This document shows positions 2,980 through 15,186 of a DNA stretch of 64,000 bases, in pieces. Source of the DNA: Leptolyngbya iicbica LK (GTDB lineage Bacteria; Cyanobacteriota; Cyanobacteriia; Phormidesmidales; Phormidesmidaceae); NCBI RefSeq assembly GCF_004212215.1, contig NZ_QVFV01000001.1, forward strand, positions 1,386,155 through 1,450,154, in the 5' to 3' direction. Position 1 is the first letter of the stretch. Each line of letters starts with the position of its first letter. The notes under the pieces were generated by a model. That model was not told the DNA's origin. It saw only the letters and a program-made list of their open reading frames with translations, and did not search any database. The position numbers were made by a program, and so were the translations under genes.

Positions 2980-4476
2980 CTATTCAATCCCGAGCTGTTG
3001 CTTCAGTTCTTTGGAGATATTCCTGGCTTTGGCGACTTCTTCAGCGGCGGGCCATTGGGTAGATTCGTTCCATTTTATTTTGCTAAGGTCGACACCGCTG
3101 AGGTCGGCACCGTCGAGACTGGCATCGCTGAGGTCAGCCCCGCTGAGGTTGGTGCCGCTGAGGTTGGTATCGCTGAGGTCGACACCGCTGAGGATGGTAC
3201 CGCTGAGGTCAGCGAAGTCGAGATTGGCTCCACTGAGATTAGTTCTGTTTAAGAGGCCATCGTAGCCAAGGTTGGCTTCCTTGAGGTCGGTACAGCTGAG
3301 CTGGGCCCCGCTGAGGTTAGCACCGCTGAGGTCGACACCGCTGAGGATGGTACCGCTGAGGTCGGCACCGCTAAGATCAGCCCCGCTGAGGTTGCCACTC
3401 TTGAGGATGGCCTGCCTGAGGTTAGCATTGCAGAAACTTGCATTGCAGTAGCGGTCACGGCCGAAGACGGCACCGCTGAGGTCGGCACCGCTGAGGTCGG
3501 CACCGCTGAAGTTGGTATCTTCGAGGTTAGCCTCCTTGAGGTTAGCACTACGGATGTGAGCTTCTTCGAGGTTGGCCCCGCTGAGGTCAGCCCCGCTGAG
3601 GTCAGCCCCGCTGAGGTCGGTACCGCTGAGGTCGGCACCATAGAGGCTAGCACCGTAGAGGTAGGCCTCTTTAAGGTTACCTCCCCTAAGGTAGGCCTCT
3701 TCGAGATTGATATCGTTGAGATAGGTTCCACTGAGGTTGGCCCTGCTGAGGTTGGCCCCGCTGAGGTTGGCCCTGCTGAGGTTGGCCCTGCTGAGGTCGG
3801 CACCACTAAGGTTGGTATTTTGGCGGTTGATAGTGTCGTGGATCAAGGCGAGATAATCACTCTCGATACCGTCAACGTGACAGTTTGGGTATTGATTTTT
3901 AGTGCCACCAATATCAAACAGATTGGCACCGCTAAGATCAGCACGATGGAGGTTGGCTTCTTCGAGGTTGGTACCACGGAGCCACGTATTTCTGAGGTTT
4001 GCCTTCCTGAGGTCGGCACCGCTAAGATCGGCACCGCTAAGATCGGCACCGCTGAGGTCGTCACCGTGGAGGTTGGCATTCCTGAGATCAGCACCACTGA
4101 GGTTAATGGTTTGTAAATCTGCTTTTGGAATATCTATCTCATAAAACGAAATATTGTCTTCATATAAATCTTCTATTGCTTTTCTGCGTGCATAGCTCGT
4201 TTCAATACCGTGAGCATTGTCAATGGTCTGCCATGCTTCATAATGTCGCTGCTTTTTTCGTTCGGGAATTTCCTTGAAGTAAAGGACTACCGCTGAAGCG
4301 ATTGCAATTGACTCTGCACTATCAAATATTACTTTTGCAGGATTGACTGATTTGTCGGGTTCAAGGACGATTGCGAGACCAGCCAAAATGACGACAACTT
4401 CTGTGATTAACCGCCATGTAGGAATTGACAGTAGTTGCTCCTCAATATTATTAAATGTTTTTTTTGCCTTCATCAC
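2980..4476 (-). CDS. Membrane-anchored pentapeptide-repeat protein
   Basis: This 498-residue protein has two hydrophobic segments near the N-terminus (about 21-39 and 49-67) and then a conserved-looking linker ([13 protein letters not shown]). From about residue 117 to 465 it is an almost continuous run of A(D/N)LSG-type pentapeptide repeats, which fold as a right-handed quadrilateral beta-helix. One interruption near 195-225 contains [10 protein letters not shown]. The tail ([11 protein letters not shown]) is helical. The HYEAWQ...A.G linker recurs in cyanobacterial pentapeptide membrane proteins; the biochemical role is unknown. It sits between a restriction enzyme gene and a relic of that gene's 3' end, so a defence-linked or hitch-hiking origin is possible. 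Very repetitive DNA gives long mirror-frame ORFs that are not genes. Confidence 0.85.
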
Positions 4477-4625: not shown

Positions 4626-7600
4626 TTATGGCCGATTGAAAGGCATGCGGGGTGGGGCGGTCTTCCACATGAGGTCGATTTCTTCGGGGGTAAGGCCGTA
4701 GGCTTGGTTGACCAGATCAGAGATGCGGTGCTCTAGGGTGAGGCCCGCGTTGCGGCGCTGCTGAATGGGGTGGGCGTAGTCGCTGTAGGCTGCTTTGAGT
4801 TCTTTGAGGGGTTTGGGGCCGAGGCTACCGGCGGCTTTGGGGCGGCGTTTTTTGACTTCTTTGAGGAAGTCGTCAAGGGGCAGGCTGGCGAAGTCGCTGA
4901 GTTTGTTGCCGGGTTTTTCGATGCCGTGTTCGAGCTGGAGCCAGTCGAGGATATCGCGGGTAGCTTCCTGATTAGCTTTGGTGAATTCGATCAGTTGTTG
5001 GACGGCAGGTTCGACTTCGGCGCGGATTTCGTCTGTCGGTGGAGCAATGGGAAAGTTTTCGATTAATTCTCCTTTGGGGGTTAGTGCTTCATCTTTCATG
5101 TGAGGAAGATAACGCCAGTTGTGCCACCAACCAATCGGTGAATTCAAAACAGCTAGAGGAAACAGCTCCTCCGTGGCTAAAATGAAGCATTTGTTATTTG
5201 TGTAATACCCTTCAGTGTCGTAGCAATATGACGGGTGAAACTGGATTTCTTGATAAATTATTTTTGGTTTCTCGAATCTTTTATATTGTGCAGGCATAGA
5301 TTGAAGCTGCCACCATTCTTGTCTGCCTGCCCTGGAATCAAGTCTTTCTCGGTGTTGCTCAAGATGTTCTTTGACTCCAGGATATTGCTCTATTCTAATA
5401 TCGGGCGTAGTCATTATCATCCAAAGCTTTTGCCACTCTGAATTCCATCTGTTAATGTCCTGTCCTCTTAGATACGGTTTGATTATTTGCACTGATTGGG
5501 AGTCTTTAGAAACAATTTCATCTCTAGTCTCTTGGTCTATTAAAAATGCTTTGTTATAGCCTGTTTTTAAGCCGTATAGAGGAGGAGTTCCAAGGAAATC
5601 ATTCAGGCAAACGCCTACTACCTTGAGCTTATCCATGAGTTGTTCGACAGCAGGAGATTCTAAGCTCCACTCTTCCTTGCCATAGCGCGCCCAAGGAACC
5701 TCGTAACCTTCTTGGTTGATGTATTGAGGGAGGTTGATATTCTCTAGATGTTCCCTTGGCACTGGACACACCTGAACAGGGGCCGCCGCTTCCGGCTTCT
5801 CTATCTCTTTTGCTTCCACTGCCTCCGGCTTTCTCACTGAGACAATGCACGGAAACACATCGGCATCCTCAAAAATTGGGGCATGGCCGAAGTCGATGAT
5901 TTGCTCAAACACACTGTTCTCCGAAAAAAACTGCCGTAGCGGTTCCCCATAGCCCGCCCGCAGCCACTTGTTCGTCACGATGTACGACAAAATCCCATTG
6001 GGCCGCAGGATATTCAGCCCCTTTTCGTAGAAATAGACATAGATATCCGCCACACCGTCATAGGCCGCATAGTGCTCTTGCAGATAGGGCTTGAAGGGCG
6101 TCAGCAACTCCTGGCGCACATAGGGCGGGTTGCCAATCACCACATCAAACCCGCCACTGGCAAACACCACCGGAAACGCCGCTTCCCAGTCAAAGGCATA
6201 GGCCGGGTCAAACGCCGGGTCCGCAATGATGGAGTTGCCCACCTTGATGTTGTTGTCTAGATAGGTCAGCGTCTTGCCCCGCTCCGCCGTCTTCAGCCAG
6301 AGGGAGAGCTTAGTAATCTCCACCGACTCCGGCGATAGGTCTACCCCGTAAAGGTTCTGGTTGAGGATGGTCTTCGTCAGGTCAAACAGACTGCGCTGAC
6401 CGACAAACTCCCCCGACTCATCCTCCGTTTTGAGGGCGGCCAGCCGTTCATTCACTTCCTCATACTTGCGATTCAAAAAGTCAAAAGCCGCAATGAGAAA
6501 CGCGCCCGAACCGCAGGCCGGATCGATCACGCGGGTTTGGGTCAGCACCTCATCCCGGTAGCGCTCCCAAAACTGAATCTCGGCCCGCTGCCGCTGCCGC
6601 ACCGCATTGGCGCGAATCTGGTCAATGCCCATGGCTTCCCAGAGGGCATCTTTCTTGCGCTCCAGATATTCGCCCAGCGCCACCCCGACGATGTACTGCG
6701 TGATGAACGCCGGAGTGTAATAGACGCCCTGGGTCTTGCGGCGGCCCTGCTTCTGGTCGTATGCCTGGTGGGTCGCCTGGGCGCGCAGTTCCTCCAAATC
6801 GGAGACCGACTGCTCAAAGATGTGCCCCAGAATGTTGACCGAGACCTCTGACTCAAAATCGTAGGTGGTGAGCTGGTTGAGCTGGCTACAGAGAATGTCG
6901 GAGACCATCAATTGCTCATCGAGCAGCGGGTCGTGGGCAAAGAGACCGCCATTGTAGCCGGGAATCGAAAGGGCGCTGTTGCCCTTGTCCACCGCTTGAA
7001 AGACCGCCTTAAAGTTCTCCCAAATCGTGCGCGGACTGTAGGGATCTTGGTGGTCGTGGGCCTGTTGTAGCGTTTTCTCCGGCAGCAGCCCCCGGTCTTC
7101 GCAAAAGGCAATGAACAGGATGCGATCGAGCACCTTTTGGGCAGCGGCGATGAGGGTGATGTTGCGCTCGGACAGGTCGGCTGGCCCCATGTGGAGGAAA
7201 TGCTTGGCGATCGCCAGCCGCACCTTTTTGTAGTCCTGGTAGAGCGCTTTGGTGATGTCTTCATCGGCGTTGGCCGACTCGATGAGCAACTGGTCAATGC
7301 GGGATTTGGCTTTGGGGTCCGCCGAGGCGGGCAAAAAGTTGTTGCGACACAGCAGGAAATAGAACTGCTTGAAGGTGTCCAGGTCTTCCAGGTCTTCGAG
7401 CCGAAACCGCTCGTAATAAGCCGGGGTTTTACTGGTCTGGTAAAGCCGGATTTCGCGATAGTTCGACACGATCACCCAGCGGCAATCGGGGGTGTAATTG
7501 GCATAGCGCCAGCCCTGATCCACCGCTGATTCATGGCGACCCTTGACGGCGCGATCGAGGTCATTGGTGACGCCCTTGAGTTCAATCGGGGCCACCACCC

Positions 7601-7964
7601 GCCCCTGAAGCTTCACCTTGCCCGAATCTTCCGTCTTGGCATGGAATAGCCCGATCGCTCCGTCCGCTGAACCGCCGCCATCGGCAATGGTTTGTTCGGC
7701 GTGCAGCTCCCAGCGATCGCCCCCAATAATCGAGCGGTACCCTAACACCGTTTGAAAGATGTCGTTGAGAAACGGCCCGTGGAGCGAGACTTCCTTGACC
7801 TTGGCGAGCCTGCCCGACTTCAGCGAGGTGATCCACTCCTGTACCTTCTGATGGCGATCGGCCAGGTCTGGCGGAAACGTGAAGCCCTTCAGGGCATTCT
7901 CGACGGTCTTCTGGTTAAAGAGGGCACCAGCAGCTTTTCCGGTCATGGCGGAGCTTGGAGTCAT
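4626..7964 (-). CDS. Single-chain restriction-modification enzyme (Type IIG, Eco57I-like)
   Basis: This 1112-residue protein combines endonuclease, methyltransferase and specificity parts. The N-terminus shows a PD-(D/E)xK-like set: Asp101 in SADGAIG and Glu128-x-Lys130 in APIELKG. The N6-adenine methylase core has motif I, DPACGSGAFL, near residue 480 and motif IV, NPPYV, near 610. A TaqI-like target-recognition region follows (KPYLRGQDINRW, then PKIIYQEI) and the chain ends in a helical domain. These enzymes cut unmodified DNA and methylate one or both strands, so one gene can form a complete system. No separate methylase or S subunit is nearby. The recognition site cannot be read from sequence. 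All key motifs look intact. Confidence 0.88.
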   Translation of the reverse strand: MTPSSAMTGKAAGALFNQKTVENALKGFTFPPDLADRHQKVQEWITSLKSGRLAKVKEVSLHGPFLNDIFQTVLGYRSIIGGDRWELHAEQTIADGGGSADGAIGLFHAKTEDSGKVKLQGRVVAPIELKGVTNDLDRAVKGRHESAVDQGWRYANYTPDCRWVIVSNYREIRLYQTSKTPAYYERFRLEDLEDLDTFKQFYFLLCRNNFLPASADPKAKSRIDQLLIESANADEDITKALYQDYKKVRLAIAKHFLHMGPADLSERNITLIAAAQKVLDRILFIAFCEDRGLLPEKTLQQAHDHQDPYSPRTIWENFKAVFQAVDKGNSALSIPGYNGGLFAHDPLLDEQLMVSDILCSQLNQLTTYDFESEVSVNILGHIFEQSVSDLEELRAQATHQAYDQKQGRRKTQGVYYTPAFITQYIVGVALGEYLERKKDALWEAMGIDQIRANAVRQRQRAEIQFWERYRDEVLTQTRVIDPACGSGAFLIAAFDFLNRKYEEVNERLAALKTEDESGEFVGQRSLFDLTKTILNQNLYGVDLSPESVEITKLSLWLKTAERGKTLTYLDNNIKVGNSIIADPAFDPAYAFDWEAAFPVVFASGGFDVVIGNPPYVRQELLTPFKPYLQEHYAAYDGVADIYVYFYEKGLNILRPNGILSYIVTNKWLRAGYGEPLRQFFSENSVFEQIIDFGHAPIFEDADVFPCIVSVRKPEAVEAKEIEKPEAAAPVQVCPVPREHLENINLPQYINQEGYEVPWARYGKEEWSLESPAVEQLMDKLKVVGVCLNDFLGTPPLYGLKTGYNKAFLIDQETRDEIVSKDSQSVQIIKPYLRGQDINRWNSEWQKLWMIMTTPDIRIEQYPGVKEHLEQHRERLDSRAGRQEWWQLQSMPAQYKRFEKPKIIYQEIQFHPSYCYDTEGYYTNNKCFILATEELFPLAVLNSPIGWWHNWRYLPHMKDEALTPKGELIENFPIAPPTDEIRAEVEPAVQQLIEFTKANQEATRDILDWLQLEHGIEKPGNKLSDFASLPLDDFLKEVKKRRPKAAGSLGPKPLKELKAAYSDYAHPIQQRRNAGLTLEHRISDLVNQAYGLTPEEIDLMWKTAPPRMPFNRP

Positions 7965-8067: not shown

Positions 8068-8895
8068 ATGACTATGTCGCTACAACTCGCTGCCTTACCA
8101 AACTTAAGCATTCAGCACCTGGACCGCCTGCCCGATTGCCCCGCGATCTACTTTGCGATCGACGATCAGGGCCGCGTGCTCTATGTGGGGCGAGCCAAGA
8201 ACCTGGCCAACCGCTGGCGCGGCAAAGGGCATCATCGCACTGAGCAACTCAAGCGCATTCATCGGCGGCATCCGGTCACGCTGGCATGGCTCGATTGTGC
8301 AGACTGCTGCGAGCGCCTGAAGGAATTGGAAGATCAATACATCGAAGAGTTTCAGCCCCTGCTGAATGGGACCGAAGTCCCGGCGGTTAAAGTCATTCCT
8401 GCCGAAACCGTCTTGCAGCAAAGCCTGGAGAAAATTGCTAAGTACGTGGTGATTTTTGGTGTGGTTGAGCCCCCTGACGCAGAGTACCCCACCGTCATCC
8501 TCAAATATCTGGGCTGGCAAAGAGAAACCACCAATCTACGCCGCATTTTCAATGGCACAAACCGCAAGCCCTCATCGCTGTATTGGACTGAGTTTGTCCG
8601 ACGTAATCCAGGTGCTTGGTGGCGATCGCGATGCAATGGGGTGGCATTACAGCTCGGCCCCTGGATTGAGTTACCCGGTATGCCGATGCCCGTGACGGAG
8701 GCGATCGCCCGCGATCAGAACTTGCATCCTTTGGCTGGAATCCCACTCCTAACCCTGACGTCTGAAGTGCTGGAGCAGTTACTCCGAAGTGATCCCAATC
8801 TGGTGAAGAGCTATCCCAATCTGAAGCCTTATCAAGCCGACCCCATTCCGCTGGTGTGGAAAGACTTTGCAATGAAGCGGGGAAGGGATCAATGA
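8068..8895 (+). CDS. GIY-YIG nuclease-family protein
   Basis: This 275-residue protein has an N-terminal GIY-YIG fold: AIYFAI and VLYVGRAKNLANRW carry the two tyrosine motifs and the arginine, HH follows, and Glu lies in LKELEDQYI before FQPLLNG. These are the residues expected for a metal-dependent single-strand-cleaving nuclease. The C-terminal two-thirds is not a domain I recognise. It is transcribed divergently from the restriction enzyme with about 100 bases between them, so shared regulation is possible. It could be a stand-alone nuclease of the defence island or a homing-type relative. The in-frame ATG two codons downstream is an equally plausible start. Confidence 0.75.
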   Translation: MTMSLQLAALPNLSIQHLDRLPDCPAIYFAIDDQGRVLYVGRAKNLANRWRGKGHHRTEQLKRIHRRHPVTLAWLDCADCCERLKELEDQYIEEFQPLLNGTEVPAVKVIPAETVLQQSLEKIAKYVVIFGVVEPPDAEYPTVILKYLGWQRETTNLRRIFNGTNRKPSSLYWTEFVRRNPGAWWRSRCNGVALQLGPWIELPGMPMPVTEAIARDQNLHPLAGIPLLTLTSEVLEQLLRSDPNLVKSYPNLKPYQADPIPLVWKDFAMKRGRDQ

Positions 8896-9062: not shown

Positions 9063-9212
9063 CTGCGGTAACCCCGACCGCAGAGGATTCCTGCCATGAA
9101 CCCTACCGCTATCACCACCACCCGCCAAACCAACCACCAACGCCGCTTAAAAGCGATTCACCTCTGGTGAGGCTTCGCCAACGACTGCCTCAACGAACAC
9201 CTCACCACTTAA
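9063..9212 (+). other. Possible small ORF interrupted by an in-frame UGA, with leader hairpin
   Basis: The 8896-9447 stretch has no clear gene. Within it an ATG at 9096 has a good ribosome site (AGAGGA, 9084-9089) directly after a 7-bp hairpin CTGCGGT/ACCGCAG (9063-9083). The frame encodes 24 residues up to TGA at 9168-9170. It then continues in the same frame for 13 more codons (GFANDCLNEHLTT) to TAA at 9210-9212. A good terminator follows. The layout looks like a small expressed unit, but whether it is a peptide of 24 residues, a broken gene of 38, or a noncoding RNA cannot be settled. Confidence 0.3.
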
Positions 9213-9296
9213 CCCCAGTCTTGACAATCCGTCCCCAGAGTTTGGGCATTCTATAAACGCCATCTCTTGTAGATGGTCTCCTGAATGAAAGGTGGA

Positions 9297-9331
9297 GCCT
9301 CCTCAGCCGCGACAGTCTGGGGAGGCTTTTT
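9297..9331 (+). terminator. Rho-independent terminator
   Basis: The 10-bp stem GCCTCCTCAG/CTGGGGAGGC (9297-9306 and 9317-9326, one G-U pair) is followed by TTTTT. It would end transcripts from the small unit around 9096 and isolate the next DUF4278 gene. Confidence 0.75.
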
Positions 9332-9447
9332 AATGCCGCGTGCCATATCACCATTCCCCGTGGGCCAGGAAACACGTTTGGGCCAGGACGCTGTCCGTAA
9401 GCGGCTGTTTCCATAAATAACAACGCACCCACAACGGAGCCCCCACG

Positions 9448-9627
9448 ATGAAACTCTCTTTCCTTGGTCAGTCCTACGAAGCGTCCATCCATGCGGTTGA
9501 CGCCGTCGAGACCAGCGAAACTGCCATCTTCCTCGGCCAACCCTACGCCCGGAAACAGTACACCAACCGCCAACGCCAACAGCCCGCTTCTGAACTGACC
9601 TATCGCGGCATTAAGTACACCACTTAA
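9448..9627 (+). CDS. Small DUF4278 protein (copy A)
   Basis: This 59-residue protein starts MKLSFLGQSYE and ends with the family motif TYRGIKYT. It is a close paralogue of the protein at 14926-15105, with about three-quarters of residues identical. Both genes share leader elements: a CGGCTGTTTC-like stretch and the identical 14-mer AACAACGCACCCAC about 20 bases before the ATG, then GGAG. It is flanked by terminators on both sides, so it is monocistronic. DUF4278 has no established function; many members are small, abundant and stress-related in cyanobacteria. It is too short to appear in most ORF calls. Confidence 0.8.
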   Translation: MKLSFLGQSYEASIHAVDAVETSETAIFLGQPYARKQYTNRQRQQPASELTYRGIKYTT

Positions 9628-10373: not shown

Positions 10374-10511
10374 CTTATGTGCGCCGTATCACTCATCCTC
10401 AGAAAAACGCTGGTGAATCCTCAGACTTCTCAGGAAGCGATTAAGTCCAGCTCAGATGACGGTCAGGGGGGGCTCAGGTGGGGGGCCGACTATAGAACTC
10501 AAGATAAATCA

Positions 10512-10532
10512 GTCGCAGAAGCGACAAAGGAG
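10512..10532 (+). promoter_or_regulatory. Leader hairpin abutting the ribosome site
   Basis: GTCGC-AGAA-GCGAC (10512-10525) forms a tight stem directly joined to AAAGGAG (10526-10532), the ribosome site of the repeat protein at 10541. The stem may stabilise the mRNA 5' end or tune initiation. TATAGA at about 10490 is a possible -10 element. The function is inferred from layout only. Confidence 0.4.
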
Positions 10533-10540
10533 TTCAAACC

Positions 10541-11038
10541 ATGAAAGCTCTTGCTGTAACCCTGACCGCTCTGACCGCTGCAACGATCGCCATTGCTCCC
10601 GCGAGCTACGCTATCCCTGACTTCAGTGAATTGCGCGAAGAGAACCTGGACAAAGGCGCGATCGACTTTGATCAACTGCGTGAAGAGAACTTAGATAAAG
10701 GGGTCATCTACGAAGTAGCCGCTATTGACTTCGACGCTCTCCGCGAAGAGAACTTAGATAAAGGCGCGATCGACTTCGATGAACTTCGTGAAGAGAACTT
10801 GGATAAAGGGGCCATCTACGAAGTGGCCGCCATTGATTTTGACGCTCTCCGCGAAGAGAACCTGGACAAAGGCGCGATCGACTTCGATGAACTTCGTGAG
10901 GAGAACTTAGATAAAGGGGCCATCTACGAAGTGGCCGCCATTGATTTTGACGCTCTCCGCGAAGAGAACTTGGACAAAGGCGCGATCGACTTTGACCAAC
11001 TCCGCCAGGACAACCTTGAGAAAGATGCTGTGGCGTAA
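10541..11038 (+). CDS. Exported tandem-repeat protein (LREENLDKG repeats)
   Basis: This 165-residue protein has a clear Sec signal peptide (about 1-24, ending PASYA). The rest is eight units of the form IDFDxLREENLDKGA. Alternate units carry the extension IYEVAA, so lengths alternate 15 and 21 residues and the true period is 36 residues. Every unit is acidic and has identical spacing of charged residues, predicting a regular helical or solenoid rod. Unit 1 (IPDFSELREENLDKGA) and the last (QLRQDNLEKDAVA) are diverged caps. I do not recognise the family. The mature protein would lie in the periplasm, lumen or outside the cell. It has a strong ribosome site (AAAGGAG). The DNA of successive 108-bp periods is nearly identical, so the array is young or kept uniform. 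Confidence 0.8.
   Translation: MKALAVTLTALTAATIAIAPASYAIPDFSELREENLDKGAIDFDQLREENLDKGVIYEVAAIDFDALREENLDKGAIDFDELREENLDKGAIYEVAAIDFDALREENLDKGAIDFDELREENLDKGAIYEVAAIDFDALREENLDKGAIDFDQLRQDNLEKDAVA
10613..11023 (+). repeat. 108-bp coding tandem repeat (about 3.5 periods)
   Basis: Periods begin at about 10613, 10724, 10832 and 10940. Within each, two shorter subunits (45 and 63 bp) encode the same LREENLDKG core. Synonymous differences between periods are few, for example gacctggac/gacttagat variants. This is characteristic of expansion by replication slippage or unequal recombination. Confidence 0.9.
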
Positions 11039-11077
11039 TGGCTCGCCCGTTTGCTGTGGCGTAATGGCTCGCCCGTT
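11026..11077 (+). repeat. Perfect 26-bp tandem duplication across a stop codon
   Basis: Two exact 26-base copies (11026-11051 and 11052-11077) lie at the 3' end of the repeat-protein gene. Each contains TAATGG. In the first copy TAA is the real stop of that gene. In the second the overlapping ATG (11064) begins the next reading frame. Before duplication the two genes would have overlapped as TAATG. Confidence 0.9.
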
Positions 11078-11269
11078 AAAGCCGGAGATGGTGCGCTATC
11101 TTCACCTGCTCGATGAGCTCTGTGCTGAAGGGCGCAGCGACTCAACTCGCCACCCCACTCCCTCTAGGCCGTCGATGGCTTGGCCGCCCCCGACTCGCGA
11201 ATCGTCATCACCGACTGCTTAACGCCCACGGTGTTCCCTGCTCTACCCACAGCTTGCCAGCCCCCTTGA
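11064..11269 (+). pseudogene. Probable frameshifted small gene after the repeat protein
   Basis: The ATG at 11064 opens MARPLKPEMVRYLHLLDELC, which looks like ordinary protein, but the frame then becomes Pro/Ser/Arg-rich and ends at 11222. A second frame, shifted by two bases and following a TAG at 11165-11167, reads AVDGLAAPDSRIVITDCLTP and continues to TGA at 11267-11269. It too looks protein-like. Together they suggest a small gene of about 65-70 codons broken by an indel and a stop. I do not recognise the family. It was probably translationally coupled to the repeat-protein gene before the 26-bp duplication. Confidence 0.35.
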
Positions 11270-11294
11270 CGAACAGTCGTTAAGGGGGCTTTAT
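11259..11294 (+). terminator. Likely terminator
   Basis: AGCCCCCTT (11259-11267) pairs with AAGGGGGCT (11282-11290), and GAC/GTC pairs inside. The tail TTATTG is only weakly T-rich. It would end the repeat-protein transcript. Confidence 0.6.
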
Positions 11295-14456: not shown

Positions 14457-14925
14457 GGTTACTGGGCCTGCCGTTCAGGCTCTTGAGACGGTGGTTGTTT
14501 CGGAGATGCGATTCTCGATTAAACCAAATCGTGGTCTATCCGGTCGCAAGATTATTCACGATGTTTACAAATCGGCCTGTCCAGATAAGTCGTCGGAGCG
14601 GGTCCCCAGGGACGGCGCGATCGCTCCCTCCAGGACGCGATCGCGTCCTCCCTACCGACGCTAAGATCCGCTGTTCGTTGTATTTCGGACAGCGCTGGTG
14701 CAGACAATCTGAGAGAAGGGTAGCCAGCAGTGATGGTTGCGTGCTTCAAGCGATCGCGCCCCTGCTGGGAATGCTGACCTAACGCCTGCCATCCCTAATC
14801 AGACCACGGGCGGTTGAAACCAATATCACACTGCCCGGTGAGCAAGAACACACTTTTGTGCCAGCAAGCTGGCGGAAAGCCGCTGTTTCTATCCTTAACA
14901 ACGCACCCACTAAGGAGCTACCACA
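14457..14925. other. Gene-free stretch with palindrome and DUF4278 leader
   Basis: No gene was seen. It holds a 16-bp perfect palindrome, GGACGCGATCGCGTCC (14633-14648), built around a HIP1 core, with other HIP1 octamers close by. Its right end (about 14869-14925) is the leader of DUF4278 copy B and matches that of copy A, including the 14-mer AACAACGCACCCAC. Confidence 0.5.
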
Positions 14926-15105
14926 ATGAAACTTTCCTTCCTCGGCCAATCCTACGAAACCTCCATCCATGCGGTTGACGCCGTCGAGACTAGCGAAACC
15001 GCCACCTTCCTCGGCAAGCCTTATCACCGCAAGCAATACACCGTTAACCAACGCCATCAGCCCAGCACCGAAATGACCTATCGCGGTGTCCGCTACACCG
15101 CTTAG
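14926..15105 (+). CDS. Small DUF4278 protein (copy B)
   Basis: This 59-residue protein (MKLSFLGQSYE...TYRGVRYTA) is a paralogue of the protein at 9448-9627 and has the same length and similar leader and downstream terminator. Conservation covers the N-terminal 30 residues almost completely (IHAVDAVETSETA is identical). The two loci therefore arose by duplication of a whole transcription unit about 5.5 kb apart. The function is unknown. GGAG lies 9 bases before the ATG. It is too short for standard ORF cut-offs but well supported by the paralogue. Confidence 0.8.
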   Translation: MKLSFLGQSYETSIHAVDAVETSETATFLGKPYHRKQYTVNQRHQPSTEMTYRGVRYTA

Positions 15106-15151
15106 ATCCAGCTTTTTTGCTTTCCTCCTGCTCAACATAACCAGACAACTC

Positions 15152-15186
15152 ACGCCCCTCTCCAGTCACGGAAAGGGGCGTTTTTT
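15152..15186 (+). terminator. Terminator after DUF4278 copy B
   Basis: ACGCCCCT (15152-15159) pairs with AGGGGCGT (15174-15181) and runs into a T6 tract. Confidence 0.85.

What the first reader, a model, noticed from the sequence alone, without database searches (positions are those of the whole stretch)
10541..11038. Exported protein built from a 36-residue tandem repeat of unknown family
The signal peptide is followed by eight LREENLDKG units alternating 15 and 21 residues, with almost no sequence drift between 108-bp periods. The array ends with diverged caps and its gene has a hairpin-abutted ribosome site. No known repeat family was recognised. Regular acidic repeats outside the cytoplasm suggest a rod, adhesin, ion-binding or structural role near photosynthesis stress genes.
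Basis: seen in the sequence. Interest (0 to 1): 0.65.

Follow-up and report, generated by a model that had tools for sequence, protein, structure and literature searches.

The report
Multicopy secreted repeat-peptide family with RNA brake
The repeat protein is one member of an undescribed family of secreted cyanobacterial peptides, present in up to about a dozen or more dispersed copies per genome, exported by two unrelated routes, and apparently controlled by its own shared promoter and, in relatives, by its own small antisense RNA.

Summary
Window 10541-11038 encodes a 165-aa Sec-type exported protein with eight units spaced 15,21,15,21,15,21,15. The repeat matches no Pfam, NCBIfam, PHROGs or PDB family.

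It is not an isolated protein. In 390 sampled class genomes the motif FDxLRRENLDKDAV occurs in 29, all in one family of filamentous cyanobacteria (7 genera), often in about ten dispersed copies per genome. Two export signals carry the same repeat. Most copies have a Sec signal. A second form has a double-glycine leader and is encoded beside an NHLM-type peptide-export operon at 11 loci. The common module is a pair of 15-mers.

Sec-type genes share a dedicated promoter: five TCAG/TTAA half-sites 11 bp apart plus TATAGAACTCAAGAT. In relatives a structured RNA not in Rfam lies downstream. Its loop is complementary to the 5' end and ribosome site of the family's mRNAs.

In this genome the window gene is the only intact copy. 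The second copy, after psbA, has a 16-bp frameshift; its RNA is degenerate, and pairing with the window leader is not above chance.

Most likely these are co-regulated secreted peptides working like EbfG matrix peptides. Secretion and regulation are well supported; the extracellular function is inferred.

The parts
10421..10496 (+). Promoter: TCAG at 10421 and 10430, TTAA at 10441, TCAG at 10452, 10463 and 10474 (11-bp steps from 10430), -10 element TATAGA at 10491
   Evidence: Sequence; 35 aligned family promoters hold TCAG at -70/-61/-28/-17 before TATAG in 34-35 of 35; the exact pattern occurs in this genome only at the two family genes
10500..10540 (+). 5' leader with hairpin GTCGC-AGAA-GCGAC (10512-10525) directly before the ribosome site AAAGGAG (10527-10533); in relatives this leader is the target of the antisense RNA loop
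10541..11038 (+). Gene of the secreted tandem-repeat protein, 165 aa
10541..10612 (+). Sec-type signal peptide MKALAVTLTALTAATIAIAPASYA (cleavage inferred after AxA)
   Evidence: sequence; signal conserved in about 45 relatives
10631..11035 (+). Repeat array: eight 9-residue cores in four pairs of 15-mers, pairs separated by 6-residue linkers (IYEVAA)
11026..11077 (+). 26-bp duplication around the stop codon, absent from the sister copy
11064..11222 (+). Small ORF MARPLKPEMVRYLHLL... (52 aa), conserved in the sister copy and in G004 only
11259..11290 (+). Intrinsic terminator of the gene (14-pair stem, TTATT); in relatives the antisense RNA element follows here, in the window it is absent

Best explanation
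The gene belongs to a lineage-specific family of secreted repeat peptides. SHOWN by sequence: the mature protein is only copies of a 15-residue motif grouped in pairs. The same pair is exported as a Sec-dependent concatemer (most copies, and the window) or, in other species, as a single or double pair behind a double-glycine leader next to an NHLM peptidase/ABC-transporter operon. The Sec genes share one dedicated promoter, and in relatives many have a downstream terminator-bearing RNA whose loop matches the family's own leaders. INFERRED: an OmpR/PhoB-type response regulator switches all copies on together. The downstream RNA, released by read-through or processing, caps the mRNA 5' end and ribosome site and damps translation of its own and sister genes. 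Outside the cytoplasm the repeated pair acts as a multivalent adhesive or matrix (public-good) peptide, as proposed for EbfG of Synechococcus elongatus. In the window's genome the family has shrunk to one intact gene and one frameshifted copy with a degenerate RNA, so the RNA brake is probably weak or lost there.
For: Family, multicopy and lineage-bound. Selection on the motif: pN/pS 0.10, motif invariant while linkers vary. Two export signals on one repeat. NHLM operon beside double-glycine forms: TIGR03796 at 1093 bits against a cut-off of 853, TIGR03896 at 194 against 161, partial TIGR03794 and TIGR03797; the operon's HlyD-like and TIGR03896-like neighbours recur at 11 loci. Pair as module: 29-30 residues after GG, 36 = 2x15+6 in Sec forms. 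Promoter array. RNA: 28 elements, 86% of cells paired against 74% when shuffled, 11 pairs with changes on both sides, 0 of 500 shuffles as high; not in Rfam. Leader/loop duplexes -18 to -33 kcal/mol against mean -8 to -16 for shuffled loops; own pairs beat permuted pairs (p 0.005 whole leader, 0.027 ribosome-site part). The target signature AGATGATT...AGGAGTTC falls only on family leaders, one orphan promoter, and the complement of the RNA itself in five genomes. RNA kept where the protein gene is dead: L154, L241, L242. EbfG precedent: PMC4997328, PMC9981879.
Against: No expression, secretion or phenotype data; the extracellular role rests on analogy. No Sec copy has a recurrent neighbour that names a pathway. 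The window genome has no NHLM transporter over cut-off and no double-glycine copy. The RNA is absent after the window gene, and the degenerate one at the sister copy pairs no better with the window leader than shuffled loops do (24% of shuffles as good). Several copies (L034, L035, L045, L048) have no downstream RNA, and in G012 two bases next to the ribosome site do not pair. In the counted alignment the stem around the loop is poorly aligned (58% of cells paired), so most counted covariation comes from the terminator stem.
Confidence: 0.5

Rival explanations
1. Bacteriocin- or signal-like peptide precursor: the two-unit 29-30-mer is the active peptide, cut from the leader by the NHLM C39 peptidase, and the Sec forms are multi-core precursors processed outside.
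For: Double-glycine leader LSDDQLKEVxGG and NHLM operon; a second GG element between pairs in L040, L065/L128 and L107; weak hits of the leader to CTB-family bacteriocin (NF038167, 21 bits, cut-off 32) and Lactococcin (14 bits, cut-off 23).
Against: No Cys and almost no Ser/Thr to modify; no modification enzyme among the nearest ORFs listed at the double-glycine loci (domains checked only at L133); no conserved protease site between units in Sec forms; the RR pair inside the motif is RE in the window.
Confidence: 0.22
2. Helical rod or surface-layer structural protein: 15-residue pentadecad repeats form a long helix or coiled coil in the periplasm or sheath, length set by unit number.
For: Strict 15-residue member L014 modelled as one 162-residue helix with pLDDT above 95 over most of it; regular spacing.
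Against: Single-sequence model of a charged repeat, which tends to come out as a helix; the window-type 15/21 protein gives pLDDT 37 and broken short helices; Gly and beta-prone linkers YEVAAI interrupt.
Confidence: 0.12
3. Selfish dispersed cassette, type I toxin-antitoxin-like: a secreted product with an antisense RNA against its ribosome site, spread as promoter-gene-RNA units.
For: Up to about 13-18 matches per genome, sharp 5' boundary of similarity near -120, dead copies that keep the RNA, loop-leader covariation.
Against: The boundary coincides with the outermost promoter half-site, so functional constraint explains it; no terminal inverted repeats or target duplications were noticed (no dedicated test was run); the product is hydrophilic after signal cleavage, unlike membrane-type toxins.
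Confidence: 0.1
4. Calcium- or metal-binding repeat (EF-hand-like loop LDKGAIDFDELRE).
For: Resemblance to EF-hand exit loop; Pfam EF-hand_1 at 16.6 bits, E 0.005; mature pI 4.05 in the window.
Against: Below cut-off (25.4); the 12-residue loop with ligands at 1, 3, 5 and 12 is not present; the 15-residue period is too short; a family member is basic.
Confidence: 0.05

Closest known systems
EbfG1-4 / PteB of Synechococcus elongatus PCC 7942 (PMC4997328, PMC9981879)
   Same: Small secreted cyanobacterial peptides in several co-regulated copies, double-glycine leaders, C39 peptidase transporter; repressed under some conditions
   Different: No sequence similarity was tested; EbfG has no reported tandem 15-mer repeats, no reported Sec-exported sister forms and no reported antisense RNA; the transporter here is NHLM type (TIGR03796)
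NHLM/NHLP bacteriocin export clusters of cyanobacteria (TIGR03794/03796/03797, TIGR03896; groups with a second ABC transporter in PMC3140520)
   Same: Operon content and adjacent GG-leader precursor
   Different: Precursor core is an unmodifiable repeat pair; the same pair also occurs in many Sec-exported genes away from any cluster
OppZ and CarZ, autoregulatory 3' UTR RNAs of Vibrio cholerae (PMC7398697)
   Same: RNA lies downstream of the gene's stop codon, bears its own terminator, complementary to its own mRNA's translation start region
   Different: One RNA family could act on about ten sister genes; here it follows a full first terminator; processing is not shown
Yfr1 and other conserved cyanobacterial sRNAs (PMC6778093)
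   Same: Two-hairpin RNA with exposed CTCC motif (recalled, not tested)
   Different: No Rfam match; lineage-bound and family-dedicated

Membership tests
NHLM-exported double-glycine peptides | Double-glycine leader | tested here: not met
   Window protein has a Sec-type signal; no GG copy in its genome. Met only by relatives L040, L065, L107, L111, L121, L123, L126, L128-L134, L136-L138, L243
NHLM-exported double-glycine peptides | Adjacent TIGR03796 transporter | tested here: not met
   Own genome: best 455 bits against cut-off 853. Met beside the GG-type copy at L133 (1093 bits); related operon genes at 11 loci
EF-hand | 12-residue loop with ligands at 1, 3, 5, 12 and score over Pfam cut-off | tested here: not met
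   16.6 bits against 25.4; period of 15 residues
ERM_C / other coiled-coil Pfam models | Score over cut-off and full domain architecture | tested here: not met
   Window: 17.6 against 23.4. L014 passes the score (50.5 bits) through several partial matches, read as charge-biased helix similarity
Pentapeptide MXKDX repeat (TIGR02953) | Curated score | tested here: not met
   14.6 against 41 bits
3' UTR-derived autoregulatory sRNA | Structured RNA downstream of the ORF with terminator | tested here: met
   In relatives: 28 elements, covarying helices. Window gene: absent
3' UTR-derived autoregulatory sRNA | Base-pairing to own mRNA translation start | tested here: inconclusive
   Predicted and supported in relatives; in the window's own genome not better than chance
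3' UTR-derived autoregulatory sRNA | RNase E-dependent release and repression in vivo | not testable with these tools
   Needs RNA-seq and reporter assays
EbfG-like matrix peptides | Required for biofilm or present in matrix | not testable with these tools
   No experiment available; analogy only

The most novel reading that the evidence does not exclude
A dedicated regulon made of one gene family: about ten secreted repeat-peptide genes with a private promoter and a private trans-acting antisense RNA family that is kept even where the protein gene has died, so that every copy dampens all others and total secreted peptide dose is set at RNA level, with a second, transporter-coupled form of the same peptide.
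Probability: 0.35. Interest if true: 0.8.

Novelty: new variant of a known kind. Interest (0 to 1): 0.62.

Why it matters
One motif on two unrelated export signals separates the functional peptide from its delivery and points to the two-unit module as the active part. The promoter and RNA give a ready handle to switch a whole multigene secreted family on and off in mat-forming cyanobacteria, where the peptides that hold filaments together or signal between them are mostly unknown. The RNA family is absent from Rfam, and the motif letters occur in none of the 5.39 million papers searched.

Tried and rejected
Known families: Pfam, NCBIfam, PHROGs and PDB gave only sub-threshold, composition-driven matches for the window protein. 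Phage or plasmid origin: no match. Photosynthesis-stress role from neighbours: rejected, other copies have no such neighbours. Transposable cassette: the sharp boundary near -120 coincides with the end of the promoter array. First RNA pattern with wrong spacing found one site and was replaced by a covariance model. Own-genome RNA hit at C10:3627 (26 bits): no family gene is adjacent, read as chance. AlphaFold on the window protein gave no fold, so no fold search was made. Second AlphaFold job on L014 gave a long helix, treated with caution. Halomicronema transcriptome paper (PMC11765580) does not mention such a gene in the passages read.

Full report
OBSERVATION. The ORF at 10541-11038 is real and open. 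It has a Sec-type signal, then eight units of LREENLDKG type spaced 15,21,15,21,15,21,15, seen by Tandem Repeats Finder as 3.3 copies of 108 bp at 92%. Synonymous drift between units is large and amino-acid drift small (pS 0.70, pN 0.067, ratio 0.10). The array is therefore held by selection on the protein rather than being fresh slippage, although recent exchange between periods is also likely (pS 0.36 between periods).

FAMILY. The window's genome (5.72 Mb, in the genus that holds Halomicronema sp. CCY15110; identity of genus inferred from matching contigs) has one more copy, 17 kb upstream of the window gene and just downstream of a psbA gene. It carries a 16-bp deletion in the signal peptide that shifts the frame, and has six units, so the window gene is the only intact one. 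Relatives of the same genus and family hold up to 13-18 matches each, including fragments and second matches within one gene. The named scan gave 67 loci, all in filamentous Leptolyngbya-like cyanobacteria: Halomicronema, Nodosilinea, Leptolyngbya, Phormidium tenue, Shackletoniella, Tildeniella and others. In a draw of 390 class genomes, 29 are positive, all in one family, 7 genera. The consensus is FDELRRENLDKDAV; the motif is nearly invariant while the linkers differ.

TWO EXPORT ROUTES. Most copies have MKRIALALTALTAVTIAIAPASYA-type signals. A second form reads ...LSDDQLKEVSGG|VDFDQLRRENLDKDASRLDEIRRENLEKD. At 11 loci it is divergent from an operon whose members in Nodosilinea nodulosa PCC 7104 (L133) are TIGR03896 (194 bits, cut-off 161), an HlyD-like protein (TIGR03794, partial), TIGR03796 (1093 bits, cut-off 853) and a partial TIGR03797. 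At the other ten loci membership rests on protein similarity to these. In L040, L128 and L107 a second GG element separates two pairs. The module common to both forms is the pair of units: 29-30 residues free, or 36 with its linker in the Sec concatemers. That two unrelated export signals carry the same module is the strongest evidence that it works outside the cytoplasm.

PROMOTER. Thirty-five promoters aligned on TATAG hold TCAG at -70, -61, -28 and -17 in 34-35 of 35, with TTAA at -50 and TTAT or TCAG at -39. That is five half-sites in exact 11-bp steps plus one outer TCAG. In the window these are 10430, 10441, 10452, 10463 and 10474, with TATAGA at 10491. Eleven-bp direct repeats running into the -35 region are the habit of OmpR/PhoB-type activators (general knowledge; the regulator is not identified). 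In eight genomes searched, the pattern occurred only at family genes and at one orphan promoter whose gene is gone.

ANTISENSE RNA IN RELATIVES. Downstream of many copies, after a first terminator, lies a 75-85-nt element: a stem (TGGTGCC/GGCACCA, TGATGCGG/CCGCATCA, TTGGTGTGT/ACACACCAA, GGTGCGTG/CACGCACC) around a loop CGAACTCC...TCAATCATCT, then a terminator hairpin. A covariance model finds it beside many Sec and several double-glycine copies at 31-85 bits. Pair counts on 28 elements: 86% of cells paired (shuffled 74%), 11 pairs changed on both sides, 0 of 500 shuffles as high. It is not in Rfam. The loop matches the leader in two arms, AGATGATTGA at the mRNA 5' end and the ribosome site AAGGAGTTC. 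Where the ribosome site reads AAGGAGCT (double-glycine forms), GGAGTC (L070) or GGAGC (L018), the loop reads AGCTCCTT, GACTCC or GCTCC. Own pairs are stronger than permuted pairs (p 0.005; sister sequences are related, so this is suggestive, not final). In five genomes the target signature falls on family leaders, one orphan promoter, and the complement of the RNA itself. Three loci keep the RNA while the protein gene is gone or decayed (L154, L241, L242). In the window's genome this layer is nearly lost: no element after the window gene, and a 22.7-bit remnant at the sister copy whose pairing with the window leader is not better than chance.

MECHANISM. Shown: sequence family, export signals, selection, promoter array, structured RNA in relatives. 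Inferred: joint activation by a response regulator, negative feedback by the RNA, and a matrix- or adhesion-like role of the multivalent pair outside the cell. EbfG1-4 of S. elongatus are the nearest functional analogue (PMC4997328, PMC9981879); OppZ and CarZ are the nearest regulatory analogue (PMC7398697). A released peptide (signal or bacteriocin-like) is the main rival.

STRUCTURE. The window protein with 22 relatives gave mean pLDDT 37 with eight short helices. The strict 15-residue member L014 gave one long helix at high pLDDT from a single sequence. The EF-hand resemblance (LDKGAIDFDELRE) fails the loop definition and the Pfam cut-off, and a basic member (pI 9.5) argues against a general ion-binding role.

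VERDICT. The neighbourhood-based idea is not supported. The interest lies in the family-wide system more than in the window copy, which is a reduced member of it.

Noticed in passing
11064-11222 (+); sister copy G000:C1:1378770-1378922(-); G004:C70:168-317: Small ORF of 51-52 aa (MARPLKPEMVRYL...DEL) directly downstream of the repeat gene, 64-71% identical in three places with no other good match among the relatives searched; in the sister copy and G004 its ATG overlaps the repeat gene's stop (TAATG), in the window a 26-bp duplication separates them.
   Followed up: partly
G000:C1:1378925-1379300 (L002/L248): Second copy of the repeat gene just downstream of psbA, broken by a 16-bp deletion in the signal peptide, with the rest of the frame intact.
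   Followed up: yes
L154, L241 (after pstB), L242: Antisense-RNA elements retained where the repeat gene is deleted or decayed.
   Followed up: partly
3082-4078: Long array of 15-bp units, probably a pentapeptide-repeat protein.
   Followed up: no
9202-9579 (-) and 14779-15153 (-): Two similar reading frames (GLDGVNRMDG.FVGL.EE..FH.G.S.VGAL) that also recur near other family loci; looks like the shadow frame of a dispersed repeat element.
   Followed up: no
4626-7964 (-) and 8068-8895 (+): Large Eco57I-like restriction-methylation enzyme (by eye) beside a GIY-YIG domain protein (Pfam).
   Followed up: no
L128:5131-5625, L129:6536-7036: Unnamed 165-167-aa protein encoded near the double-glycine locus in two genomes; no NCBIfam match.
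   Followed up: partly
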